From Amphirosellinia nigrospora (Eukaryota; Ascomycota; Sordariomycetes; Xylariales; Xylariaceae): a DNA stretch of 64,000 bases. The position numbers and the translations under genes were made by a program. A model generated the notes under the pieces. It did not search any database. It was not told the origin of the DNA and saw only the letters and a list, made by a program, of their open reading frames with translations. The first letter of the stretch is position 1, and each line of letters begins with the position of its first letter. Shown one piece after another: positions 4,171 to 64,000 of the stretch. The stretch covers positions 1,364,001-1,428,000 of the forward strand of contig SCHM01000004.1 in assembly GCA_004123355.1 (NCBI GenBank), read 5' to 3'.

Positions 4171-6638
4171 CTATACTATAAGGTGTAGCAACCAACCTCG
4201 CATGCCACCTAATGCTTCAAAAGCTGCAGCATAATTCTCTAGAGTTGCTAAGACGGAAAGGAGTCCCTGTTGCAGACGATCACGCAAATTGTCTACGAGG
4301 ACGCTGTTATTCCCGTTTGATCTAGGGTATATGGTCTCGATGCGATCCTTGACCATAAGCAGGGCGTAACTAGACTGCATGGCGCAACAAGCAAAGGAGG
4401 GCATCGTTCTGGGGGTAATCAAAGTTGATCTGGAACCTAGATAGATGGGGGTCTCGCAAAATTGGCTGGCGGGATTTGGATAAGGCATAGCATCAAAGCT
4501 TGCGGCGATGTTAAGGGCAGCCTTTAAGCAAATCCTGGAAGACTCATGCCTCGAGAATGGGAAGTCGGATATGGAGGACTGTATATGCCCATTCGCCCCC
4601 GGTGAGGGGCTATCGGACGAGCCAGGCGATAAGGATCCTGTAGAGTGACTATAAGATGATGGAGGGCTATGCAAAGATGTCATACAGCATGCCAACCGCT
4701 GTGGCTCCGAGCCATCCAGGTCCTTCTTGGGGAGGCTAGCTAAATCGCAGTGTTTGCTGGAGAACACCGCAACGTCAAAGAAGGCGCAGTAGCGATGCAC
4801 CTTGATTCGGGCACTGCGAAAAGACTTGTCAGCACATCGTTACTTCGTTACACATAATAAAACTAATACCTATTCAACTTGATACGCGACATGCATCGCA
4901 ATGCATTAGCCACAACAGCCTCGCTACGATCAACCGGTTGGGTTAACGAGTAGTTGGTAGACCATGACTCGGATTGAGTTATCAACGGCTCTAATAGTCC
5001 CTCAAGCTCCTGCATACGATTATAGATTCGAGTCATGTCTGTCTCAGCTTTTCTGACCTTGTTAAAATCGATTACGAACTGTGTGGCGGCTAGAATAGCT
5101 TGCTGGGATCGTACGAAACTCGGCCAAGCCTTCAAACGGTCAGCACAGTTAGAAAAGAGTGGTTAATCTCGTACCTGTGGATCGGCTTCAATCGTAGGGT
5201 ATCGAGCCGTGTAGCTGGGACCAAAGACCTCAAAAGTTGGAGGCTACGTTGCTGTTAATATACGGATACAAGTAATTCCATGGGGGTCCGCAGATTTACC
5301 GTGTTGCTGACTATCGAGCCTTGACAGACACAAATATATGTCATCCACCAGACACGTCGGCGCGCCTCTGAATATTTGTCTTCGACGTCATTCCTTGTGT
5401 GTAGAAACAGAGACATTGCTGCTACTAACGCTGCGCCGGCTCGTGCACGCATTTTCTTCAGGTTCCCACGTTGAGCATACTCGTAAACACTTAAGAGGTC
5501 AAGAGCGATAATACTTTCCAGCTCTAAGGGGACCGCTGGGTGGAATTGTTCCCTATATCCCTCGCTATCGGCGTCATCAAGAGCCTTGGATGGGTCAACA
5601 GACGATTCCGGTCGCTCATTCTCATTTTCAATGCTCTCTAATGAACTTTTGGCAAGAAACTGAGAATATGTACGTCTCCAGCGAATAGACTCCTCGCTTG
5701 ACGGGTTAGAGTCGAGAGGAGATGGAATAAGTGCTAGTAGTATTGCTGAGATGGCGAGAGAAATCGCAGAGAAAGGTTCTTGAAAGCTATCATTCTGATT
5801 TTCCGCGAGGGCGAGCGGTTGGTCGGGTGCAGGTACCTGCTCTGGTGGTGGCAGGATGGGGAAAAATGGATGGATCCAAATATAATACGCATTCAAACTC
5901 CGTTAATGTTAGTTGTGATATTCACTCGAGTTGCGCAATAACTCACATGGCACTATCGTTATTGCCGTAAGTGCGAGCGACCGGCACATGTATATTGAAG
6001 GGCGAATCATCTACAGGACTTTGAAAAAGGTGATCATAAATAGCATCGCTGTCCTGGAATACGTCGGCTAACGATTTGAGGCCGGCTCCAGGCCCAATAT
6101 ATTCTTCTACCAATAGTCCTATAACTCGTCAACACCTAGACGGGTGTTTGAACATGGGACATCTCACCCTGTTGTGGAAGCTCCTCGACTTTGGGGGTAG
6201 AGAGGTGGCAAGGTCCTGGTAGTCGGAAAGAGGACGCGATTTCTTGCGGATGCGCGGTCCCCCCCTCCGACTAGGTTTGTATACGCACTCGCGATCCTTT
6301 GTTACACACTGAGACTGGGGTTAGACTTTCTGTTTTGCTGCCGTCGGGTCGCACACTATGAAGAGCAGTTTGGGGCAGAATGACAAATCTAAGGGAAAGG
6401 GGAACTATACACTGGCGCACGGCTGCCCGCCGTTACATCTCGTTCTCGACGCCCGGCTTTTTGTTTTGATCCGCTATTAGTACGAGGTGACACGGCGCGA
6501 ACGAATGAAGTTCGTAGAGCCTGACGTATGACGGGCCACGTACCAGGATAGACAGGCTATCTTCACAGGAGGAACAGCAAATTTCTTCCTCGAAGGAGTA
6601 GCACAAGGCCTAGACGGTGCTTCGGCCACCTCGGCCAT
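4171..6638 (-). CDS. Zn(II)2Cys6 transcription factor with fungal-specific TF domain
   Basis: Predicted nuclear DNA-binding regulator. Start chosen at 6638 (MAEVAEAPSRP). Joining three exons (6638-6544, 6456-6411, 6308-6168) gives an exact binuclear zinc cluster C-x2-C-x6-C-x5-C-x2-C-x6-C: ACLSC, RASRTRC, NGGQPC, ASC, VTKDREC. It is followed by YKPSRRGGPR and a basic RIRKK stretch. The next exons (6118-5947, 5897 to about 5297, and on to 4171) encode the middle-homology domain: NAYYIWIHPFFPILPPP, PPTFEVFG, RRRVWWMTYICVCQ and VIDFNKVRK. A Ser/Pro-rich linker (HSPPSSYSHSTGSLSPGSS) follows the exon beginning ARIKVHRYCAFFD. The order matches the family common in filamentous fungi; the target pathway cannot be told. 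The junction at 6168/6118 is out of phase by one base, as elsewhere in the window. The extreme C-terminus after GGMRG is uncertain and may be an intron donor. Confidence 0.85.
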
Positions 6639-18101: not shown

Positions 18102-20429
18102 ATGAGCGCTCTAAAAGGTCTACTCGCGCGTCTCCCATCACTTCGGATCCCAGGCACTGCATACCACGCTCTACCAACATACGATCGGGGGCAGGATGAT
18201 TCGAATCTGGAATCGTCTGTTGCCTTATCCGGAAGTCGGCATAATGGTGGTGTAATGAAGCCCGCTCGGCGCTTGAGTTTGTTGCTTCGCACCTCGCCTA
18301 AGAGATTTGTTTTTTTCGCGATAGCTGGCTTGACAGTCTTGATCCTCCTGGTTACGGGAAGCGTGCGTCAATATAAGACGGAAGAAAAAGAAGAAGTAGA
18401 TGAGACAATACCCTATCATTGGGGGGCATTTCCCAAGTAAGCGCGTCAAAGGCCACACTATACGCACTCATAACGTTGACTGCATTCATGCTAACCTGCC
18501 CCTCAAGATTTAATGGCTACTACAATGGCGTTCGCCCTCGTCGCTTACAAGGATTGGATCCCAGAGCAGAAATTACCGCCAGACGCAAAATTCAAGATTC
18601 ATGATGCACCCCCGTTCGACCCACAGATAGTTCATCCATTTCCTGACTTCGCCTCTGACGAGTACCTGGAGGAACACTATCCCGTTCAGGGATGTTACTT
18701 AGATGAGGATGAGAAGCATCCAGCTCCAGATATCTATGCGTATCCGGGCATCCCTGCCAAAATGGCTGCTCCATTATGGGGTGATTACGAGACATTAGGA
18801 ATCGCCCCAGACAGATGTTATGAGCGGTTCGGGCGTTTTGGCCCATATGGCTATAGTTACAGCCGTGAAGAGGGTGGCTTGGGTCTTTCGGAGCATTCTA
18901 GCCACGCAGGAGCAGAACAGGTACAAGCCATGATCAACAAAGTGGACTTCCGCAAGGTCAATTGGGGTAGTGCCCAAAAGCGATGCTTTGAGAAAAATAA
19001 GAAACGGTTCGGCTCGAAGAATACCGCATCCGAAAGAGAAGAGGTTCATAAGAAGAAAATGCCCCGCTCGGCTTTTGTCCTGCGTTCGTGGACGGGATAC
19101 GACTACAGCGATATTCAACTTCTTACTCTGAGAGCAATGATCAATGAGCTCTCTCTGAAGTCAGGTGGTGAGTACGACGTGCACCTCCTTGTTCACGTCA
19201 AGGATAATAATCTACCAATATGGGCATCTGAGGAGGCATACAACAAGACCCTGAGGGAGAACGTGCCAGCTGAATTCTGGGATATCACCACTTTGTGGTC
19301 TGAACGGCAAATGCGAACCTACTACCCGGGCCGTTCCGGAAGAAAGATAACGTTGCTAATCACGCGGACGCCGACATATATGGGGTTTACCGGTCTGCGC
19401 ATTTTGCGTTACAATGGTTTTCTCAGCAGCACCAGGAGTACGATTTCGTTTGGAATTGGGAGATGGATTTGCGATACGGTGGTCATTATTACGAGTTTCT
19501 AAACGGAGCCTCGAACTGGGCGGCCAAGCAGCCTCGAAAATTCATGTGGGAGCGTAACTCGCGCTTCTGGATTCCGGAGCGCCACGGACCTTGGTCCAAT
19601 TTTACAGAACTTGTTGAGAAGGAAACAGGAGAGGCAAGCGAGACGCCTATCTGGGGTCCCATAACATTCCCGACGGGTAACTACAAAGTACTGTCCTCTC
19701 CTAACAACACGAAGCCACCTACTACATTCGAACAAGACGACTATAAGTGGGGTGTAGGTGAGGCTGCAGATTTGATAACCTTCGATCCTATATTCGATCC
19801 GACCCAAACCAACTGGGTATTCCGGGACGACGTAACGGGTTACGATACTTCAGTCCCTACGCCGCCACGACGCGCCGCTATCATTACCGTTGCGCGTCTT
19901 TCAAGGCGTTTGTTGAATACAATGCAGTACGTATTTCCTAGTCATCCATTTCCCTATTTTCCTACATTTCTACTCGTATATATGTGTCTGTATTTATACG
20001 ACCCCGAAATCAATGTTAAACACTATAAGCCGCGTTTCTAACGTGATGTTTTACAGCGAGGAGACCTGGCGTGTACATCACACCATGTTTCCGGAGATGT
20101 GGCCCCCAAGCGTTGCATTTCACCATGGTTATAAAGCTCTCTACCTCCCACACCCAGTCTTTTTCGACAGAAATTGGCCCATAGACGTGTTGGACCAGAT
20201 CTTCAACAAGCCTCAAACGCCAGTAGATAGTCCCTTTGGCTGGGGCGAGCATAACATGCAAGGCGGCACTTTTTATTACAACTCGGGATTCAGTGGCGCA
20301 CTTTGGCGTCGCTGGCTGGGTGCTACTGAGGACGGGGAGGGTGGCCTCCAGAACGAAGAAGGCGGTACAGATCGAATGTGCCTACGGCCGTTATTGCACC
20401 ATCCCATTAAGCATGAGGCTGTGGAATGA
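18102..20429 (+). CDS. DUF3405 protein, predicted type II membrane glycosyltransferase-like
   Basis: DUF3405 proteins are common in filamentous fungi and look like Golgi glycosyltransferases, but no activity is established to my knowledge. Exon 1 (18102-18436) has a cytosolic N-terminus, one membrane anchor (FVFFAIAGLTVLILLVTG) and a stem. Introns are at 18437-18507 and 19927-20056, both GT-AG. The lumenal domain carries the family's blocks: AYKDWIPEQ, MPRSAFVLRSWTGYDYSDIQ, VHLLVHVKDN, NHADADIYGVYRSAHFALQW, DFVWNWEMDLRYGGHYYEF and FHHGYKALYLPHPVFFDR. The acidic NWEMD motif may be the metal/sugar-nucleotide site (inference). The frame breaks near 18530 and near 19345. The next gene on the same strand starts 658 bp later. 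Confidence 0.85.
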
Positions 20430-55896: not shown

Positions 55897-56231
55897 TTAG
55901 ACTCGTTAAATGGGTCGTTAATCGTGCGTTCATAATTAATTATCTAGGCTGTATAGTTAGGTTTCATACATATAGATAAGTATTGTTGATATAGGTATAA
56001 AGGGAGACCAATTTATTCGGATGGGAATGATATGTCGTGTTGCATGATGGGCCGAATTTGGACAAGTGCAGTCTATCCCTATCGACCCCAACGACGGTGA
56101 ATCTGGTCCAATAAGTCAATAAGGAGAAGGCGGGGAATTCCATTCGACGTATCATATCAATCAGACCATCTCTATTCAATAAAGATGTGTGATTGACTCC
56201 CTTGTGTGTGGTCTGGCAACCCCTGTTCACG
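55897..56231. promoter_or_regulatory. Compact divergent promoter of the membrane-protein/protease pair
   Basis: This 335-bp interval separates the start of the anchored protein (-) and the preferred ATG at 56232 (+) of the protease-like gene; an ATG at 56193 would make it 296 bp. A/T-rich in its first half. The spacing is far shorter than most others in the window. Confidence 0.45.
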
Positions 56232-59110
56232 ATGCCGAATTTCCTTCGCCCTCAAACATATCCCTATGCGGTTTCTTCGACGGGGCCGTATCGGGGACTT
56301 CTAGTCCACAAGTATGCTTCTTGGGATGCGCAAGGCCCTGCAAGGGAGATCTTCACGAATGAGATTGCCGGGAAGATCAAGGGATGTTTGGAGCAATGCC
56401 TACCGGAATCGAATTCTTTTATCGGTTTCTCCTTGTTCATGGTCGGAAAGCTACGCGAGAAGACCAAGCCAACGATTATGATCGTCTCAGATGATAAACC
56501 ACGTCGAAAGGCAGCATTCCAGATTGTCAAATCGAAGAATATCTTGACTATGTACCCGGGCTTTGACTAGGGCACTGCTCTGTTGCTGCCGAGTTTGAGG
56601 ATCTCAGGCGGCTTGGGTCCGATACCGCATTGTCAACAGATAAAGACTCATATGGAGATGTTCAGTATCTGGATGATGAGTTTGATCCCGGAACCGAGAT
56701 TCGGGGTTTGCTGTCGACAGAAGTGTGTGCTCTTGAATACCCAAGCTGGGAAAAACCTATTCGGCTGTACTTCCACACATCGTCGAAATTGCATTCGCAT
56801 TCGCACCATGCAGCCACCGCTACTTGTGGCGGGCTCTTCCGATTTAGCAACGAACTCTATGCCTTAACGATGGCCCATGCTGTTCGTCCGGTTCAACTTG
56901 CGATCACGAGCCTAGAACCACATGACGACTCATCAAGCCAATCCGACGATTTCGAGATCACTGGCATGGACGGTTGGGACGAGGATGACGAAGAAGATGC
57001 CAAAACCTTAACTGCCATCACCAGTTTTGGGAGCAAGACGTCTTCCGAGAATTCGGACTTTGAAGAGAGCCTTCTCAGATCTTACGACTCACGTCTTTCA
57101 TCTGACATAAGCATCAAAAGTTGTGTGGGCACGGGCCATTTGTGATTCACGAAGAAGAGTGTATCATGAAGAACTACGAGGATGATGATGATGAGAATGA
57201 AACGAGGACGAAGATGGCGTATTCGACATGTGTGAGCCGATCGGGCCAATTGTCAGCGTTGACGAGGCCCTCGATATTGCCGTGATTAAAATGACACCGA
57301 ACGAATCCGCGACAGGTTCGATCTACTCGCTTGAAGAACTGTTAATCAGTACCGACTTGACCAACACGTCTATCATTATCAAGACTATGCACCACCCAGA
57401 AATAAGGGGTGAGCGCTCTGCGATGCCCTTTTACACCCGGCTGCCTGGCAAAAGCAACTTCTTAGAACTATACAGTGTACGATTAAGCACCCCGGTACGT
57501 CCTGGTGATAGCGGCAGTTGCGCATTCAATGACAAGGGAGAACTTGTTGGCTTCGTTCTGGCCGGGAGCCGCAAAGCCGCGTCGTGTCTACTGCTTCCTT
57601 CTAGGTTAGCCTTATTGTCGGCACAGTCACTTCTTCGAAGCCGGGAGTCCATCACAGAACTTAGTCATGTAAATTCGGCTAGCCAGCTTCTGAATAGCCC
57701 ATTGCCAAATCATTTTAAGTCAGTCTTTCGACGGTTACTTGCAGAGTCAATTGTTCGACGCTCGGAGCTCTTCATAGAACTTAGTCGTGTAAATTCGGCT
57801 GGTCAGCTTCTGCATAGAGGTAGTGGGAAGGGAAAGGAAAAGATTGAGGCTAGCGAGGAGGGATATGGTATGAGTGCTACCAACTATTTGGACGAACCCG
57901 ATTGGGATGAATTCGCATATCCCCCAGGGGCTTACGAAAGCATCAGTCCGAGTAAGGATGATTATGCTCGGAACGCCGCTTCTAGCCAAAAATCGAACAA
58001 GAGGACACACAACAACATGTCTTCGTCAAACACACCTGACCAGGATACAAGGAGTGTTGATAGCAGTTTGGCTCCTTCAAGTTTATTGAGCTACCGGACG
58101 GGCCGTGGAACAACGCCATCTACCGTGGCTTCTTCCGCTTTTTCGACAGAGTATGAACAAATCCCAGGGACCTCACTCGCACGAGAAAGATTTTCTCGGG
58201 GTAACGTACCATCGATAGACAGTTTCCTACAAGAGCAATATACCAGGCTGCAGAAGTCTATCATAGCTTGGGGGATCTTACAAGAACACAACAAGCCCCT
58301 ACAAACATTTAACACCCGCAACCAAGATCACGTACGGCCGGTCTCACCAAAAGACAAGCAGTCGTATCCTAACATTGCTCCATTAGAAGACATTACACTT
58401 ACAAGCGCGAGTTTTGCTTCCCCTCCCCTACATGAATCTGATTCGTCGCTGCCCAGTAGGCTCAGGGCTCTAGAAGCCGAGCTAGAGTCTAACCGCGTCG
58501 TCGTCGAAGAAACGAGGGCCATGTGGCGGACACAGATTGACGCTAATGAAGCACTAGATAGGGAGAATAAGGAATTAAGAAAAGGCGTCGCGCAGGCTAT
58601 AGAAGCGATCCATGGAATCCAGGGTGACCGAAAGGAAGCCAAGGACGAAGAATTACTGAAGATTGCTTCTAACTTAGGTAATTTCCTTCACAATGCCGAC
58701 TTGAACCCTATGTCGGGGCCAGGTCAAGGATAAGAAAGAGCCGAAGCCTAGCGACAAGAAGCTCATGGATCTTCCACCATTTCCTGAAGGGAAGAGCAAG
58801 CTCCGCACGCCCTTTCGCAGGAAATTAGCATCCCACGAAAAATTGTCGCTGAGAAGATCACAGATATTTAAACGCAACTCTGGGTTACTGCCTCTCCTTC
58901 GGCATTGAGAGATCAGAACTTCTCACTAACAATATCGGAAGTGATCAGGAAGACAACAGTTTAAGGCAGTACCCAGTCAACAAAACAGCAGCCAAATATA
59001 CCTGCTCAGAGTGTGGTTTCGAAGAACACTTTGAATATGCAACGAACGAAGATGATGCTATATGCCAAAACTGCGCGCATCGGAAATGCGATGAATGCAA
59101 ATTCGCCTAG
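56232..59110 (+). CDS. Chymotrypsin-fold protease-like protein with coiled coil and Cys-rich tail
   Basis: Start MPNFLRPQTYPY at 56232. The N-terminal domain (LREKTKPTIMIVSDDKPRRKAAFQIV) is of a kind often seen before trypsin-like domains in fungi, as I recall. The protease-like domain then has a full candidate triad: His in LTMAHAV (codon 56876-56878), Asp in ALDIAVIKM (57273-57275) and Ser in RPGDSGSC (57510-57512). An acidic Ser-rich insert lies between His and Asp. After the domain comes a duplicated helix unit, a Ser/Thr-rich linker, and a coiled coil (LPSRLRALEAELESNRVVVEETRAM). The end has a basic Pro/Lys segment and CSEC, then CQNCAHRKCDEC, a probable zinc-binding unit with stop at 59108-59110. 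Frame shifts lie near 56570, 57135, 57205, 58725 and 58905. No signal peptide, so it is likely cytosolic. Proteolytic activity is inferred from the triad; its role is unknown. Confidence 0.72.
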
Positions 59111-59757: not shown

Positions 59758-62700
59758 CTAGTAGGGGATGCCGTTCGTCATCAGCTGGAATTGGTCATAC
59801 ACCATTGTACTATAGCTTCCGGCACTCTTCTTGACAAGGTCTTGACAAACTCGGCCGCTTCCCATTCATTTTCTCTAGAACAAAGCGCTCCTTGAAGTGT
59901 GCGACACTTTCAGGCTTAAAGCATGGAAGTCCGCTCTCCATCATTAAGAGAACGATTTGGCTTAGTTTCTCGGCATAGGGCCGACAGGCGAGGAAGGCCT
60001 TGACGCATAACTGTTCAAACGACTTGAAGGCTTGATGCTCGATACTCCCTCCCATGACTAGAATCATCTCGTTGGTGAGCTTGAACGGCGCGCGCTCGAA
60101 CTTCACACCGCCGGGAGCGATATCGAAACAAAAAACCGAAATCGATATGAGGATGTGACCAGCATCGTCTATCATGATGTTGCCATTATGGCGATCTTTG
60201 AATTGTAGCAGGAAGGATATGATGCTGTAAGCAGCCATGCTCTTGACGAAATTGGTTCGTGCTTGTTGGAAGCGAAGTGAGTCCTCATTCCCGTACTTGC
60301 TGATGAAATAGTCATAGAGGCCATTGACAGCTTCACGTCCGAGCATGTCTCGGGATATGGAATTCGGCAGGACATCAATAACACCACAGCCGGGTGCAGT
60401 AGCTGTCACGCGGTACGGGAAGACATACACGTCCAACCCTACACTGTGGAATATGCCTCGGAAAGCAGCGATCATCTGTAGAGCCAGAACGTCCTGACGA
60501 CAATCGTCACCAACTTTGAAGATAGCACTTTGCCAAGCTTCAACGGTTTTCTGAGACTGTGCTTCACCCGTTTTAGTAATTTCTCGGGCAGCCTCCTCGG
60601 AATCTTCCACGGTTCCGATAGCCTTTTGGATGCGGAAAGTGGCCATGAAAGGCGCCTTTGCGTGGGACTGGAGAGGTTTCCCGGATTTCCCGATCAATGC
60701 CAATAACTACGCCGTCGGGGTTGCTGGGTAAAAGACGCCTACAGCAACCTGGATCTTACGAAGCTCTTCTTCGATCTTTGTTTCTTTTCCGGCTTATCGC
60801 GCTTGATCAGTGGCTTGAGCTTCCCAGATATACTGGTAACTTCATCAAAGAATGCAAACTCTCTCTCGTAGAAACTCTTATCTTCTCCAGAGAAGCTGTC
60901 AATCAATTTTTCGTTACCGTGTCAAGAGCAGGCTTTATGGCATCAGGCTAGCAGACGTCAATACTGTGTACAAAAAATATAACTAGGATTAAACTTACGA
61001 TAGTAGCGTCGTCGTCTTTGTAAGAGTTTGCTTTCATATTCCATATGATTGGTGCGCGAATAACTGAGAAAACTGCGCCGTTTCGATGATGTACCGTTCC
61101 ACGTATCCTAAGGCATCAAAGCGAAGACTTTGGACAATTTGAGGGACGTAGAAAAATGTTACATCAATAGGGTGGTACTCAAGAGCTCTCATGGCGTATT
61201 GAATGAGGAATGGATGATTCTTATACGCTGGTAAGAAAATAAGTAGTAGCGGTGACCGGATTAACGGGTGTCCAGTACAAGAGATACTAAAATTTGTTAA
61301 CATGATGAAGCAGTTGGAGATTAAGGAACCTACCTTGAGCTGGAATCGAACATCTTGAGGAAGCTCGCCACCAATAATATGGAGAGCGCCTCAGCGTCAC
61401 ACAGTGCTTTAGTAGGAAAGTTCAATAATAACCAACGAACTTCTTGATGCACACTCGGCATGTTGAATCTGTTTACAAGCTCGATGGCAAGGAAGGGCTC
61501 TCGGACCACGCAACACGTATCAATGGTTTCAAGGTAACCTGAACTTTTAGCTAAGAACACATCAAGGATTATTTCAAAAGACTTACTTCTAGTGTGGCCT
61601 TGCCGTGATTTGTCATTACTTCCGGCCGTATATATGCCCCTCATTAAGGGGATGGATCCAAACATTCAGCCTCGCCTGTTCGCTCTCCAAGAGAATTTCG
61701 AAGAGCGACTCCTTTTGGGTTGAAGACACGAGATTGCTTACAGGATGGATAGCAGTAATGTGCGATACACCCTTGAGACCGTTCTTGATATCATTGATTA
61801 GTTTCACTTCAGTTTTTAGCTGTAACATATTGCTGCCAAAAGACCACTTCGGTGAAAACCGAAACCAACTCAAGCCTGCAGACAGTATCTTGTCTTTCAG
61901 ACGCCATTGAGCAGCGGCCCCGGCAGTTTCACTTAGTCTCAAAACTTTCAAACTGAATAGTACTATCCTCAATCGAAGTTCTCGGGCTAGAGGTGTGAGA
62001 TGGAACATTTCAGAGCGTCTAACGTCAGGTCGAGTAGCCGGAGGAAGACTCTCTGGGTATCGGGACTGCCTAGCCGGGTGGCGTTGAAATGGCTGTCGAA
62101 GAACTGCATCAACTGAGTGTGCGGAGCCAGAAGGTTATGTATCTGCTGTCTTTGCTTCGTGAGAGCTTCGTTGTTACTAGGGGCGAATTCTTTCCTTAGG
62201 AACAATGGATCTGGGTGCCTAGTTGACCTGCGTTAGTATATTTGAGAGGCTGAATAAGGAGGCATACGTCCTTACATGAAGTTTGGATTAAAAAGACCTA
62301 ATTTCGCTTGAATTGTAACTTCCCATTGTTGGGCAATTTCGCTTAGTAATCGTGGTTCCATCCTGGGATTTTCGTTTATCACGCCGAGCCAAAGGGAGAC
62401 ACCAAATTTGATAGACTCTTTACTAAAGATGCGAAATGGAATAGTGACGAGATAATGAGTTATAGCGCTCTCGTCCTTCGGGCTGCGGCACAGAGAGCAG
62501 CAGCACGTCGGAGAATGTCTCTAACATCTTGCAAAGGTGTCACCTTTTTCCCAGTCAAACGAGACTCGAAATGAGCAAGAGCAGCAACGGCGTCGGCGCG
62601 ATCTGAAGGCGCAGACTTAATGAATGAGTTTCTCCGTACCATTGGCATAACATTAAGCAGATCTGTGCCATGGCTGGGCAATGTCTCTCCGTACCTGTAC

Positions 62701-64000
62701 TCTTGGCGTGTGGTATATTGAGCAATGAAATCCGAGGCTGTGTTGATAGTAGTCTCACCGATTCGGTCTAGCGATGTTAATCGCTGATCCGTTGCTGGAA
62801 TAGCAGAACCCATTTCTACCGCGAATGAGCGCCCTAGTGACATATGTCCGTATGCACCCTCATCATTAAATTCAGATAAATATGTCTGGAGCAGACCTTT
62901 CACGTCGGTTGGCGCGAGATTGATGGCGAGGGAGACCCAAGACTTTGCTTGCTTGTAAATATTGTTAAGAGTCGCCTTCCTAAACGAGTAATCGTCCGAC
63001 AACTCAACTGTGACGTTCCCAAGGTTTGATGTGAAGACGGACTGTGGATCGTATAGCTCTGTTTCAGCTTGGAAACAGCCCAGCCACATTAGGGACAGAA
63101 GTTCCAGAAGTGCAAACAACGACGACTTTTGGCAGAGGGCAGAAGGGACCTCGCGGATCATTTTATCCGCGCAATAAAACGCTGCTTGCTGAACGCGTTG
63201 GATGCGATGGCAACAGCCGCAAAAATTGTTGCGAGCTGAGATGCCGCGTAGTGTGCAGAGAAAGTCGAAAGTTTTGCATCAAGAGTTTTGTCCAGATACT
63301 TCTCTATCACAGCTGATGCAATTCCTTCCATTACACTGCGTACATCGTCCTTACGCATGCTAGGTTCTAGGAAGTATGATAGTACCTTGGTGCAATCACC
63401 GGAATCGGCTCGCAGGCTCTCAACTAAGTAAGCAGCCTGAAGGAATATAACTTTTCTGTAGCTTAAACCTTTGATATGAGACGATCTGGATGGGACAAGA
63501 CTGGCTAGCGATTTCTTTTGCTTAGCTTCTCGATCCGACGTGTTGGCTCGACGGAGAACAGTGTTGAGTTCAATATCGCTTTCAATCTGTTCTCCACGTT
63601 GTTCTGCAACAAGTGGAGGCGAGTGTATCGCCATATATCTTAGTTCATTCATGTACTTTTTACCCCTTTCAGTTGTAGGGGTGAAGCCGTGGACTACGAT
63701 ATTAAACCATGCATCGCGAATCTGAGCAAATCCTTCGTCATCTTGGCCAGACATTTTAGCTGCAAAGTCATTGGCGGACATTAACGTAGCCAAGGGCTGG
63801 AGGAGCTGGGCAATCTCTTGCGCGGCAAATTCAATATCCGACTCTTTCATGTGGTTAGATTGATGGACATCTCCCTTCGAAACCAAATCTTCAAGCATGT
63901 ATTCAAGGTAGATCTCAAACAAGTGAGATTCGCGCTTAATATTCGCTGAGATGTGGTTGCGGGCTTTCATGACCTACAAACGTTAACATATTTCTTTATC
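59758..64000 (-). CDS. STT4: Phosphatidylinositol 4-kinase STT4 (PI4K type III alpha), 3' part
   Basis: Makes PI4P at the plasma membrane. Only the C-terminal two-thirds or so is in the window; the 5' end lies beyond 64000, with an acceptor near 63973. The stop at 59758-59760 follows the family-typical MVYDQFQLMTNGIPY. The helical-repeat and PIK accessory region runs from 63970 to about 60800 (KFGVSLWLGVINENPRME, LLYWTPVNPVTATTYF, RALEYHPIDVTFFYVPQIVQ, RYIIETAQFSQLFAHQ). The kinase domain follows: VYLPSNPDGVVIGIDR, FKVGDDCRQDVLALQMIAAFRGIF, FKDRHNGNIMIDDAGHI and FDIAPGGVKFERAPFKLTNEM. Introns are at 62228-62275, 60948-60998, and near 61541-61588 and 61278-61332. At least nine one-base shifts are needed (for example near 63162, 62012, 61633, 61350, 61225, 61050, 60710, 60155 with 60132, 59880 and 59845). 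STT4 is essential in yeast, so errors are likelier than loss. Confidence 0.92.

What the first reader, a model, noticed from the sequence alone, without database searches (positions are those of the whole stretch)
56232..59110. Protease-like protein with intact triad, coiled coil and Cys-rich tail in one intracellular chain
His (AHAV), Asp (LDIAVI) and Ser (GDSGS) occur in order with spacing suited to a chymotrypsin fold, without a signal peptide. The tail pattern C-x2-C-x17-C-x2-C-x4-C-x2-C resembles the small Cys clusters scattered through uncharacterised fungal proteins. An N-terminal recognition-like domain, a cytosolic protease and a binding tail would suit a sensor/effector such as those in fungal self/non-self or cell-death systems. 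That role is inference only. This is my best candidate for an undescribed system.
Basis: partly seen in the sequence, partly recalled or inferred. Interest (0 to 1): 0.75.

Follow-up and report, generated by a model that had tools for sequence, protein, structure and literature searches.

The report
Fungal intracellular trypsin-like protein family member
A fungal gene, split in this assembly by what look like sequencing errors, encodes a protease-like protein without a secretion signal; it appears to belong to a small family, one member of which lies directly behind a known fungal cell-death domain, so it may be part of fungal self-destruction.

Summary
Coding-like sequence runs from about 56232 to 59110 (+), over six stretches in changing frames. 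The neighbouring PI4KA/STT4-like kinase breaks in the same way, so assembly indels are the likeliest cause. His (56876), Asp (57273) and Ser (57510) occur in order. Pfam Trypsin_2 matches the Asp-Ser part only, under its cut-off (21.9 and 26.8 bits; cut-off 27.6). The N-terminus is not hydrophobic. His to Asp is about 132 residues with an acidic insert. The coiled coil is weak. The Cys tail is real: a second copy (75% identical, dN/dS about 0.09) lies on another contig with no protease within about 5 kb.

New: three distant relatives in the same genome share the motif order, and Pfam does not model their protease lobes. One directly follows a HeLo cell-death domain, apparently in the same gene. 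Best reading: a Pfam-unmodelled family of intracellular S1-like proteins, possibly in regulated cell death. No HET or NLR match was listed within 230 kb. Fold, activity and the single chain remain unshown.

The parts
56232..56570 (+). N-terminal module (open stretch 56193-56570), no signal peptide by hydropathy; weak resemblance to the N module of three relatives
   Evidence: alpha/beta pattern, pLDDT 43.6; rank 2 of 1639 ORFs, E 0.54; 7.0 bits, 0 of 2000 shuffles, max 6.8; leave-one-out 8.1 bits, 0 of 1000, max 7.2
56567..57145 (+). End of N module and His lobe, ATCGGLFRFSNELYALTMAHAV, His codon 56876, then acidic/Ser-rich insert
   Evidence: 79 (leave-one-out 4.7 bits, 2 of 1000 shuffles; residues 61-130 of the stretch 2.2 bits, 8 of 2000; whole stretch -0.2 bits, 33 of 2000); not among the top 8 of the window; no Trypsin_2 match alone
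57106..57199 (+). Third-frame bridging stretch inside the acidic insert
   Evidence: codon HMM
57201..57640 (+). Asp/Ser lobe of the trypsin-like domain: LDIAVI (Asp codon 57273), GDSGS (Ser codon 57510)
   Evidence: 75 (rank 1 of 1639 ORFs, E 0.005); 79
57621..57817 (+). In-frame direct repeat, two 77-nt copies 120 nt apart, 82% alike
58455..58625 (+). Charged helical-looking stretch, weak coiled-coil candidate
   Evidence: 244 of 5000 shuffles do as well
58713..58850 (+). Lys-rich linker in another frame, joining ORF3 to the tail
58853..59110 (+). Six-Cys zinc-ribbon-like tail; no Met in this open frame
59810..63973 (-). Neighbouring PI4KA/STT4-like kinase gene, itself in changing frames (gauge for assembly indels; not part of the system)

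Best explanation
The locus encodes one intracellular protein: an N-terminal module, an S1 (trypsin-fold)-like domain with His, Asp and Ser and an acidic insert between His and Asp, a Ser-rich region, and a C-terminal six-Cys zinc-ribbon-like tail. It is a divergent member of a family with at least three other members in this genome. Proposed mechanism (inferred): the N module and the variable C-terminal domain bind a partner or signal; the acidic loop restrains or places the protease; on activation the domain cleaves a target, or serves as a scaffold, in a regulated cell-death or incompatibility pathway. Shown: motif order, weak S1 homology, relatives, tail conservation, a HeLo domain directly ahead of one relative. 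Inferred: a single chain, the fold, catalytic activity, the pathway. The frame breaks are most likely assembly indels.
For: Trypsin_2 match to the Asp-Ser part and a V8-protease alignment from Asp through Ser (E 0.065). Relatives L027, L028, L029 carry a His-lobe motif and then GDSG(S/A)W(V/I) in order. Leave-one-out profiles link the window protein to them: Ser lobe 17.4 bits, 0 of 1000 shuffles; N module 8.1 bits, 0 of 1000; His lobe 4.7 bits, 2 of 1000. HeLo PF14479 lies immediately 5' of relative L029. Tail copy on C4: dN 0.16, dS 1.88. Assembly-indel reading: PI4KA-like kinase in changing frames with no second close copy among the ten kinase loci compared, split DUF3405 gene, kinase matches elsewhere that abut or overlap in different frames.
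Against: Pfam stays under the curated cut-off and does not cover the His piece. AlphaFold models of two pieces were poor. The N-module and His-lobe scores are small; even among the relatives the N module is weak (leave-one-out for L028 3.8 bits, 11 of 1000 shuffles; L029 1 of 1000); segment borders were chosen by eye. Window-wide, the finding's His lobe is not in the top 8. The codon HMM does not call the GDSG pieces of L027 and L029 coding. The tail occurs elsewhere without a protease within about 5 kb. No HET or NLR match nearby. No HeLo match ahead of L027 or L028 in the ORFs scanned. Real pseudogenisation is not excluded.
Confidence: 0.55

Rival explanations
1. A decaying pseudogene: the frame breaks are real mutations and the locus no longer makes a full protein.
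For: Five frame changes in 2.75 kb; by the same HMM the glycogen debranching gene has four in 4.6 kb and the mismatch-repair gene one in 2.7 kb, some of which may be introns. No close paralogue.
Against: The adjacent PI4KA-like kinase has five frame changes in 2.35 kb by the same HMM, some perhaps introns, an unalike patch in a conserved catalytic stretch, and no second close copy among ten loci compared. DUF3405 and two kinase places elsewhere break without room for an intron. Every stretch of the finding keeps coding-like codon use.
Confidence: 0.2
2. Two genes: a protease-like protein ending near 58733 and a separate small zinc-ribbon protein whose last exon is the tail.
For: A tail copy lies on C4 with no protease piece in its 10-kb locus; a Met occurs in the 58713-58850 linker frame.
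Against: No Met in the tail's own open frame or in the C4 copy's; the coding HMM shows no gap between ORF3, linker and tail; relative L028 is likewise followed by a zinc domain, DUF7896.
Confidence: 0.2
3. An intracellular protease or pseudoprotease with no role in cell death or self/non-self recognition.
For: No NLR or HET match nearby; mostly metabolic and housekeeping genes around; no HeLo match at two of three relatives in the ORFs scanned.
Against: HeLo directly ahead of relative L029; different flanking domains among members.
Confidence: 0.4

Closest known systems
Trypsin_2 / S1-type serine proteases (PF13365; V8 protease, Deg proteases)
   Same: Order of His, Asp, Ser; GDSGS; weak profile and sequence matches over the Asp-Ser part
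   Different: About 132 residues between His and Asp with an acidic insert; no hydrophobic N-terminus; extra N module and zinc-ribbon-like tail; below the curated cut-off
Fungal cell-death proteases: subtilisin-like HET-Q2, CHAT- and S8-headed receptors beside gasdermins (passages of PMC9815663 and PMC12881547)
   Same: Intracellular multi-domain proteases proposed as sensors or activators in fungal cell death
   Different: Those are subtilisin-like or CHAT; 'trypsin' does not occur in the main text of either paper; no NACHT domain here; gasdermin neighbours not searched for
HeLo-domain proteins (PF14479; HET-S class, recalled)
   Same: One relative (L029) has a HeLo domain directly 5' on the same strand
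   Different: The window pieces have no HeLo match
Trypsin-like domains of bacterial conflict systems (passages of PMC7159879 and PMC8195603)
   Same: Trypsin-like domains joined to adaptor or STAND modules
   Different: Bacterial; no shared adaptor shown; PADLOC gives only RT-Protease_XI at E 0.017

Membership tests
S1/Trypsin_2 (PF13365) | His, Asp, Ser motifs in order with GDSG | tested here: met
   codons 56876, 57273, 57510; GDSGS
S1/Trypsin_2 (PF13365) | Profile score at or above the curated cut-off (27.6 bits) | tested here: not met
   21.9 bits; 26.8 bits in a shorter query with the His piece joined by X, the matched stretch still only Asp-Ser
S1/Trypsin_2 (PF13365) | Two-beta-barrel fold | tested here: inconclusive
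   half-domain single-sequence model, pLDDT 34.9
S1/Trypsin_2 (PF13365) | Proteolytic activity | not testable with these tools
   needs bench work
In-genome S1-like family (L027, L028, L029) | GDSG lobe related to the relatives' beyond the motif | tested here: met
   14.2 bits, 0 of 2000 shuffles with GDSGS fixed; leave-one-out 17.4 bits, 0 of 1000; rank 1 of 1639 window ORFs, E 0.005
In-genome S1-like family (L027, L028, L029) | N module and His lobe related to the relatives' | tested here: inconclusive
   N 8.1 bits, 0 of 1000; His 4.7 bits, 2 of 1000; window-wide N E 0.54, His not in top 8
In-genome S1-like family (L027, L028, L029) | Trp after GDSG(S/A) | tested here: not met
   window protein has Cys (GDSGSC); the relatives were picked by a pattern with Trp
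Fungal NLR | NACHT domain in the chain or next to it | tested here: not met
   no NACHT match in the pieces; nearest listed match about 524 kb away
HET-domain protein | HET domain PF06985 | tested here: not met
   none in the pieces; nearest listed about 232 kb away
HeLo cell-death protein | HeLo domain PF14479 in the chain | tested here: not met
   absent from the window pieces; present 5' of relative L029
Protease/gasdermin pair | Gasdermin gene adjacent | not tested
   no gasdermin search was run; no gasdermin family appeared in the Pfam scans of 24 of 43 window ORFs of 150 aa or more, but fungal ones may escape Pfam

The most novel reading that the evidence does not exclude
Filamentous fungi carry an unrecognised family of cytosolic trypsin-fold proteases, regulated by an acidic loop and swappable N- and C-terminal binding modules, that act as initiator or executor proteases of HeLo-type regulated cell death; the window gene is a HeLo-free, zinc-tailed member.
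Probability: 0.22. Interest if true: 0.78.

Novelty: new variant of a known kind. Interest (0 to 1): 0.52.

Why it matters
In the paper passages seen here, the proteases tied to fungal cell death are subtilisin-like or CHAT. A trypsin-like family with the catalytic residues kept, unmodelled in Pfam, and in one member lying directly behind a HeLo domain would give a further protease class to test, and a parallel with the trypsin-like domains of bacterial conflict systems.

Tried and rejected
Homologues outside this genome: viral contigs with ORF3 and with ORF1 and genome contigs with the Asp/Ser lobe gave no relative; no fungal sequence collection was on hand. PDB by sequence: nothing for the N module, best E 0.032 for the protease piece, nothing for a relative's Ser-lobe ORF or the HeLo ORF. 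NCBIfam and PADLOC gave nothing firm. AlphaFold on two pieces gave poor models, so no fold search was run. Own-genome searches with the relatives' proteins: one search found L020/L028 itself and the two other relatives (E 1.9e-10 and 0.003); one search found only L029 itself. DUF7896 as a marker of the family: rejected, since two other DUF7896 places show none of the three protease motifs in the 3.2- and 3.3-kb loci held. A fourth GDSGSWI hit (L022/L030) was dropped before all profiles; later the His and Asp motifs were not found in its 10-kb locus. The pattern search alone is thin proof: 2 places against 1 for its reversed control, then 4 against 0. Species: not identified. One search listed 10 of 44 papers; passages of the Rosellinia necatrix R18 paper (PMC10796067) mention 11 contigs and a table row near 45.4-46.0, which I take for GC; the window's 2-kb bins are 44-58%; not settled. 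Paper searches for a description of such a family: 15 of 87 listed; 12 of 51 listed; no paper; 21,469 papers, 5 listed, uninformative; none seen, but most subscription papers are not held. Of papers I saw only listings, and passages of PMC9815663, PMC12258605, PMC7159879, PMC8195603, PMC12881547 and PMC10796067.

Full report
Setting. The window is G000:C6:1364001-1428000 of a 48.1-Mb, 11-contig genome. Its genes are those of a filamentous fungus: among others a Fungal_trans piece, AFG1, DUF3405, glycogen debranching enzyme, glycerol-3-phosphate dehydrogenase, a mismatch-repair protein, a cation-efflux protein and a PI4KA/STT4-like kinase. I scanned 24 of the 43 stop-to-stop ORFs of 150 aa or more (list) plus two shorter pieces. 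The genome gave 35 NACHT matches and 151 HET matches, a lower bound. The species was not identified.

The observation. On the + strand the open stretches are 56193-56570, 56567-57145, 57201-58733 and 58853-59110. A codon-usage HMM trained on six other window stretches gives coding from 56310 to 59057 in six stretches with five abrupt frame changes and no non-coding gap. Asp to Ser is 79 residues. His to Asp is about 132, because an acidic, Ser-rich insert lies between (28 D/E against 6 K/R in the 113 residues counted). The N-terminus is not hydrophobic. The tail is C-x2-C-x16-C-x2-C-x4-C-x2-C. The coiled-coil signal is weak (244 of 5000 shuffles do as well). A 77-nt direct repeat with 120-nt spacing lies just after the protease-like domain.

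Why the frames break. The neighbouring kinase aligns to human PI4KA at E 1.8e-89. By the HMM it changes frame five times in 2.35 kb, some of which may be introns, and in the PI4KA alignment a short, conserved catalytic stretch is unalike while both sides fit. Among the ten kinase loci compared (of 13 matches) the others are at most 38% identical to it; one further place, C5:2895908 (40.3 bits), was not compared. DUF3405 in the window continues in profile from 190 to 187 across a frame change with about 17 nt between. Elsewhere, kinase matches at C4:3914390-3914593 and 3914578-3915120, and at C4:3764462-3764668 and 3764665-3764949, overlap in different frames with continuous profile positions. 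Such breaks in several conserved genes point to assembly indels. Against it, the glycogen debranching gene shows four frame changes in 4.6 kb and the mismatch-repair gene one in 2.7 kb, so error density would have to be uneven; a real pseudogene is not excluded.

Is it a trypsin-like domain? Trypsin_2 matches ORF3 over residues 16-117, from just before the Asp to after the Ser, at E 3.1e-4. A shorter query with the His piece joined by X gives E 9.6e-6, but the matched stretch is again only the Asp-Ser part, and the His-bearing stretch alone has no Trypsin_2 match. Both scores lie under the cut-off. The PDB gives only weak sequence matches; the V8-protease alignment covers Asp through Ser (E 0.065; best overall 0.032). 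AlphaFold models of the half-domain and of the N module were poor (pLDDT 34.9 and 43.6), so the fold is untested.

Relatives. The window protein has no close paralogue. Back-translated patterns for GDSG(S/A)W(V/I) gave two places (reversed control one), then four (control none). Three of the four, L027 (C1, 12.02 Mb), L028 (C6, 3.69 Mb) and L029 (C1, 2.45 Mb), carry upstream 'TFGGIIKV..GMTAGHV', 'TLGGVIAV..GLTAGHV' and 'SLGGVIMV..GMTVHHM', then acidic or Ser-rich stretches and the GDSG lobe; DWAL was found in L027 and L029, while in L028 the Asp motif falls at a frame break and was read by eye. The three resemble each other in the Ser lobe (L020/L028 against L019/L027 E 1.9e-10, against L021/L029 E 0.003). 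The fourth, L030, was dropped; no His or Asp motif was found in its locus. Profiles from the three put the window's ORF3 first among 1639 window ORFs for the Ser lobe (E 0.005) and ORF1 second for the N module (E 0.54), but the window's His lobe is not in the top eight. Against shuffles the window protein scores: Ser lobe 14.2 bits, 0 of 2000 with GDSGS fixed; N module 7.0 bits, 0 of 2000 (maximum 6.8); His lobe 33 of 2000 over the whole stretch and 8 of 2000 over residues 61-130. Leave-one-out: Ser 17.4 bits, 0 of 1000; N 8.1, 0 of 1000 (maximum 7.2); His 4.7, 2 of 1000. The N module is weak even among the relatives (L028 left out: 11 of 1000; L029: 1 of 1000) (all). Segment borders were chosen by eye. 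The ten ORF pieces of the relatives scanned match no Pfam family at E up to 1 except DUF7896 in L028. The window protein has Cys where the relatives have Trp after GDSG(S/A); they were picked by a pattern with Trp.

Variable ends. L028's Ser-lobe ORF is followed by an ORF with DUF7896, a zinc-finger-like domain (E 2.9e-27), also present at two other places that show none of the protease motifs in the loci held. L029 is preceded on the same strand by an ORF with a partial HeLo match (PF14479, E 1.2e-7, 32.2 bits, cut-off 23.2) and a stretch that looks kinase-like by eye only. The HMM gives coding from 8574 to 5215 in L029, through HeLo, His and Asp motifs, reading over one stop; it does not call the GDSG piece near 4962 coding, nor the GDSG piece of L027. 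The first Met of L029's S1-like ORF is residue 48, inside the N module. A 52-nt stretch with fungal-type intron signals (signals recalled) covers the stop, but 52 nt does not keep the phase by itself, so the junction is open. HeLo is the cell-death domain of the HET-S class (recalled; Pfam describes it as prion-inhibition and propagation).

The tail. Its 40-aa core has one other match in the genome, on C4 near 5.987 Mb; over 53 aa the two are 75% identical, with dS 1.88 and dN 0.16, an old copy under purifying selection. None of the protease pieces occurs in the 10-kb locus around it. Neither tail ORF contains a Met, so each is probably the end of a longer chain or a later exon. Weak matches are to zinc ribbons.

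Interpretation. The best reading is a member of a family of intracellular S1-like proteins with swappable flanking modules. [quoted passage not shown] PMC12881547). Against it, the nearest NACHT match is about 524 kb away and the nearest listed HET match about 232 kb. I give 0.55 to the family reading as stated (lowered from 0.60 on re-checking, see Tried and rejected) and about 0.22 to the bold cell-death protease reading. From recall only, similar 'GDSGSWV...GHIVAG' proteins seem common among uncharacterised Pezizomycotina proteins; this could not be tested here.

Noticed in passing
59810-63973: The PI4KA/STT4-like kinase next door changes frame several times although no second close copy was seen among the ten kinase loci compared; useful as a gauge of assembly error.
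   Followed up: yes
L029 (C1:2447200-2457199), 8625-4660 minus strand: HeLo domain plus kinase-like stretch running into an S1-like relative: a candidate HeLo-protease fusion.
   Followed up: partly
L018 (C4:5982000-5991999), 5101-5304 minus strand: Second copy of the six-Cys tail with no protease piece in the 10-kb locus; what gene it ends is unknown.
   Followed up: partly
57621-57817: In-frame 77-nt direct repeat, 120-nt spacing, 82% identity, just after the protease-like domain.
   Followed up: partly
18495-20038: DUF3405 gene split by a frame change with about 17 nt between the two profile matches, no room for an intron.
   Followed up: partly
L030 (C6:981200-991199), 4701-5294 plus strand: ORF with GDSGSWI but no His or Asp motif found in the locus; doubtful relative.
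   Followed up: partly
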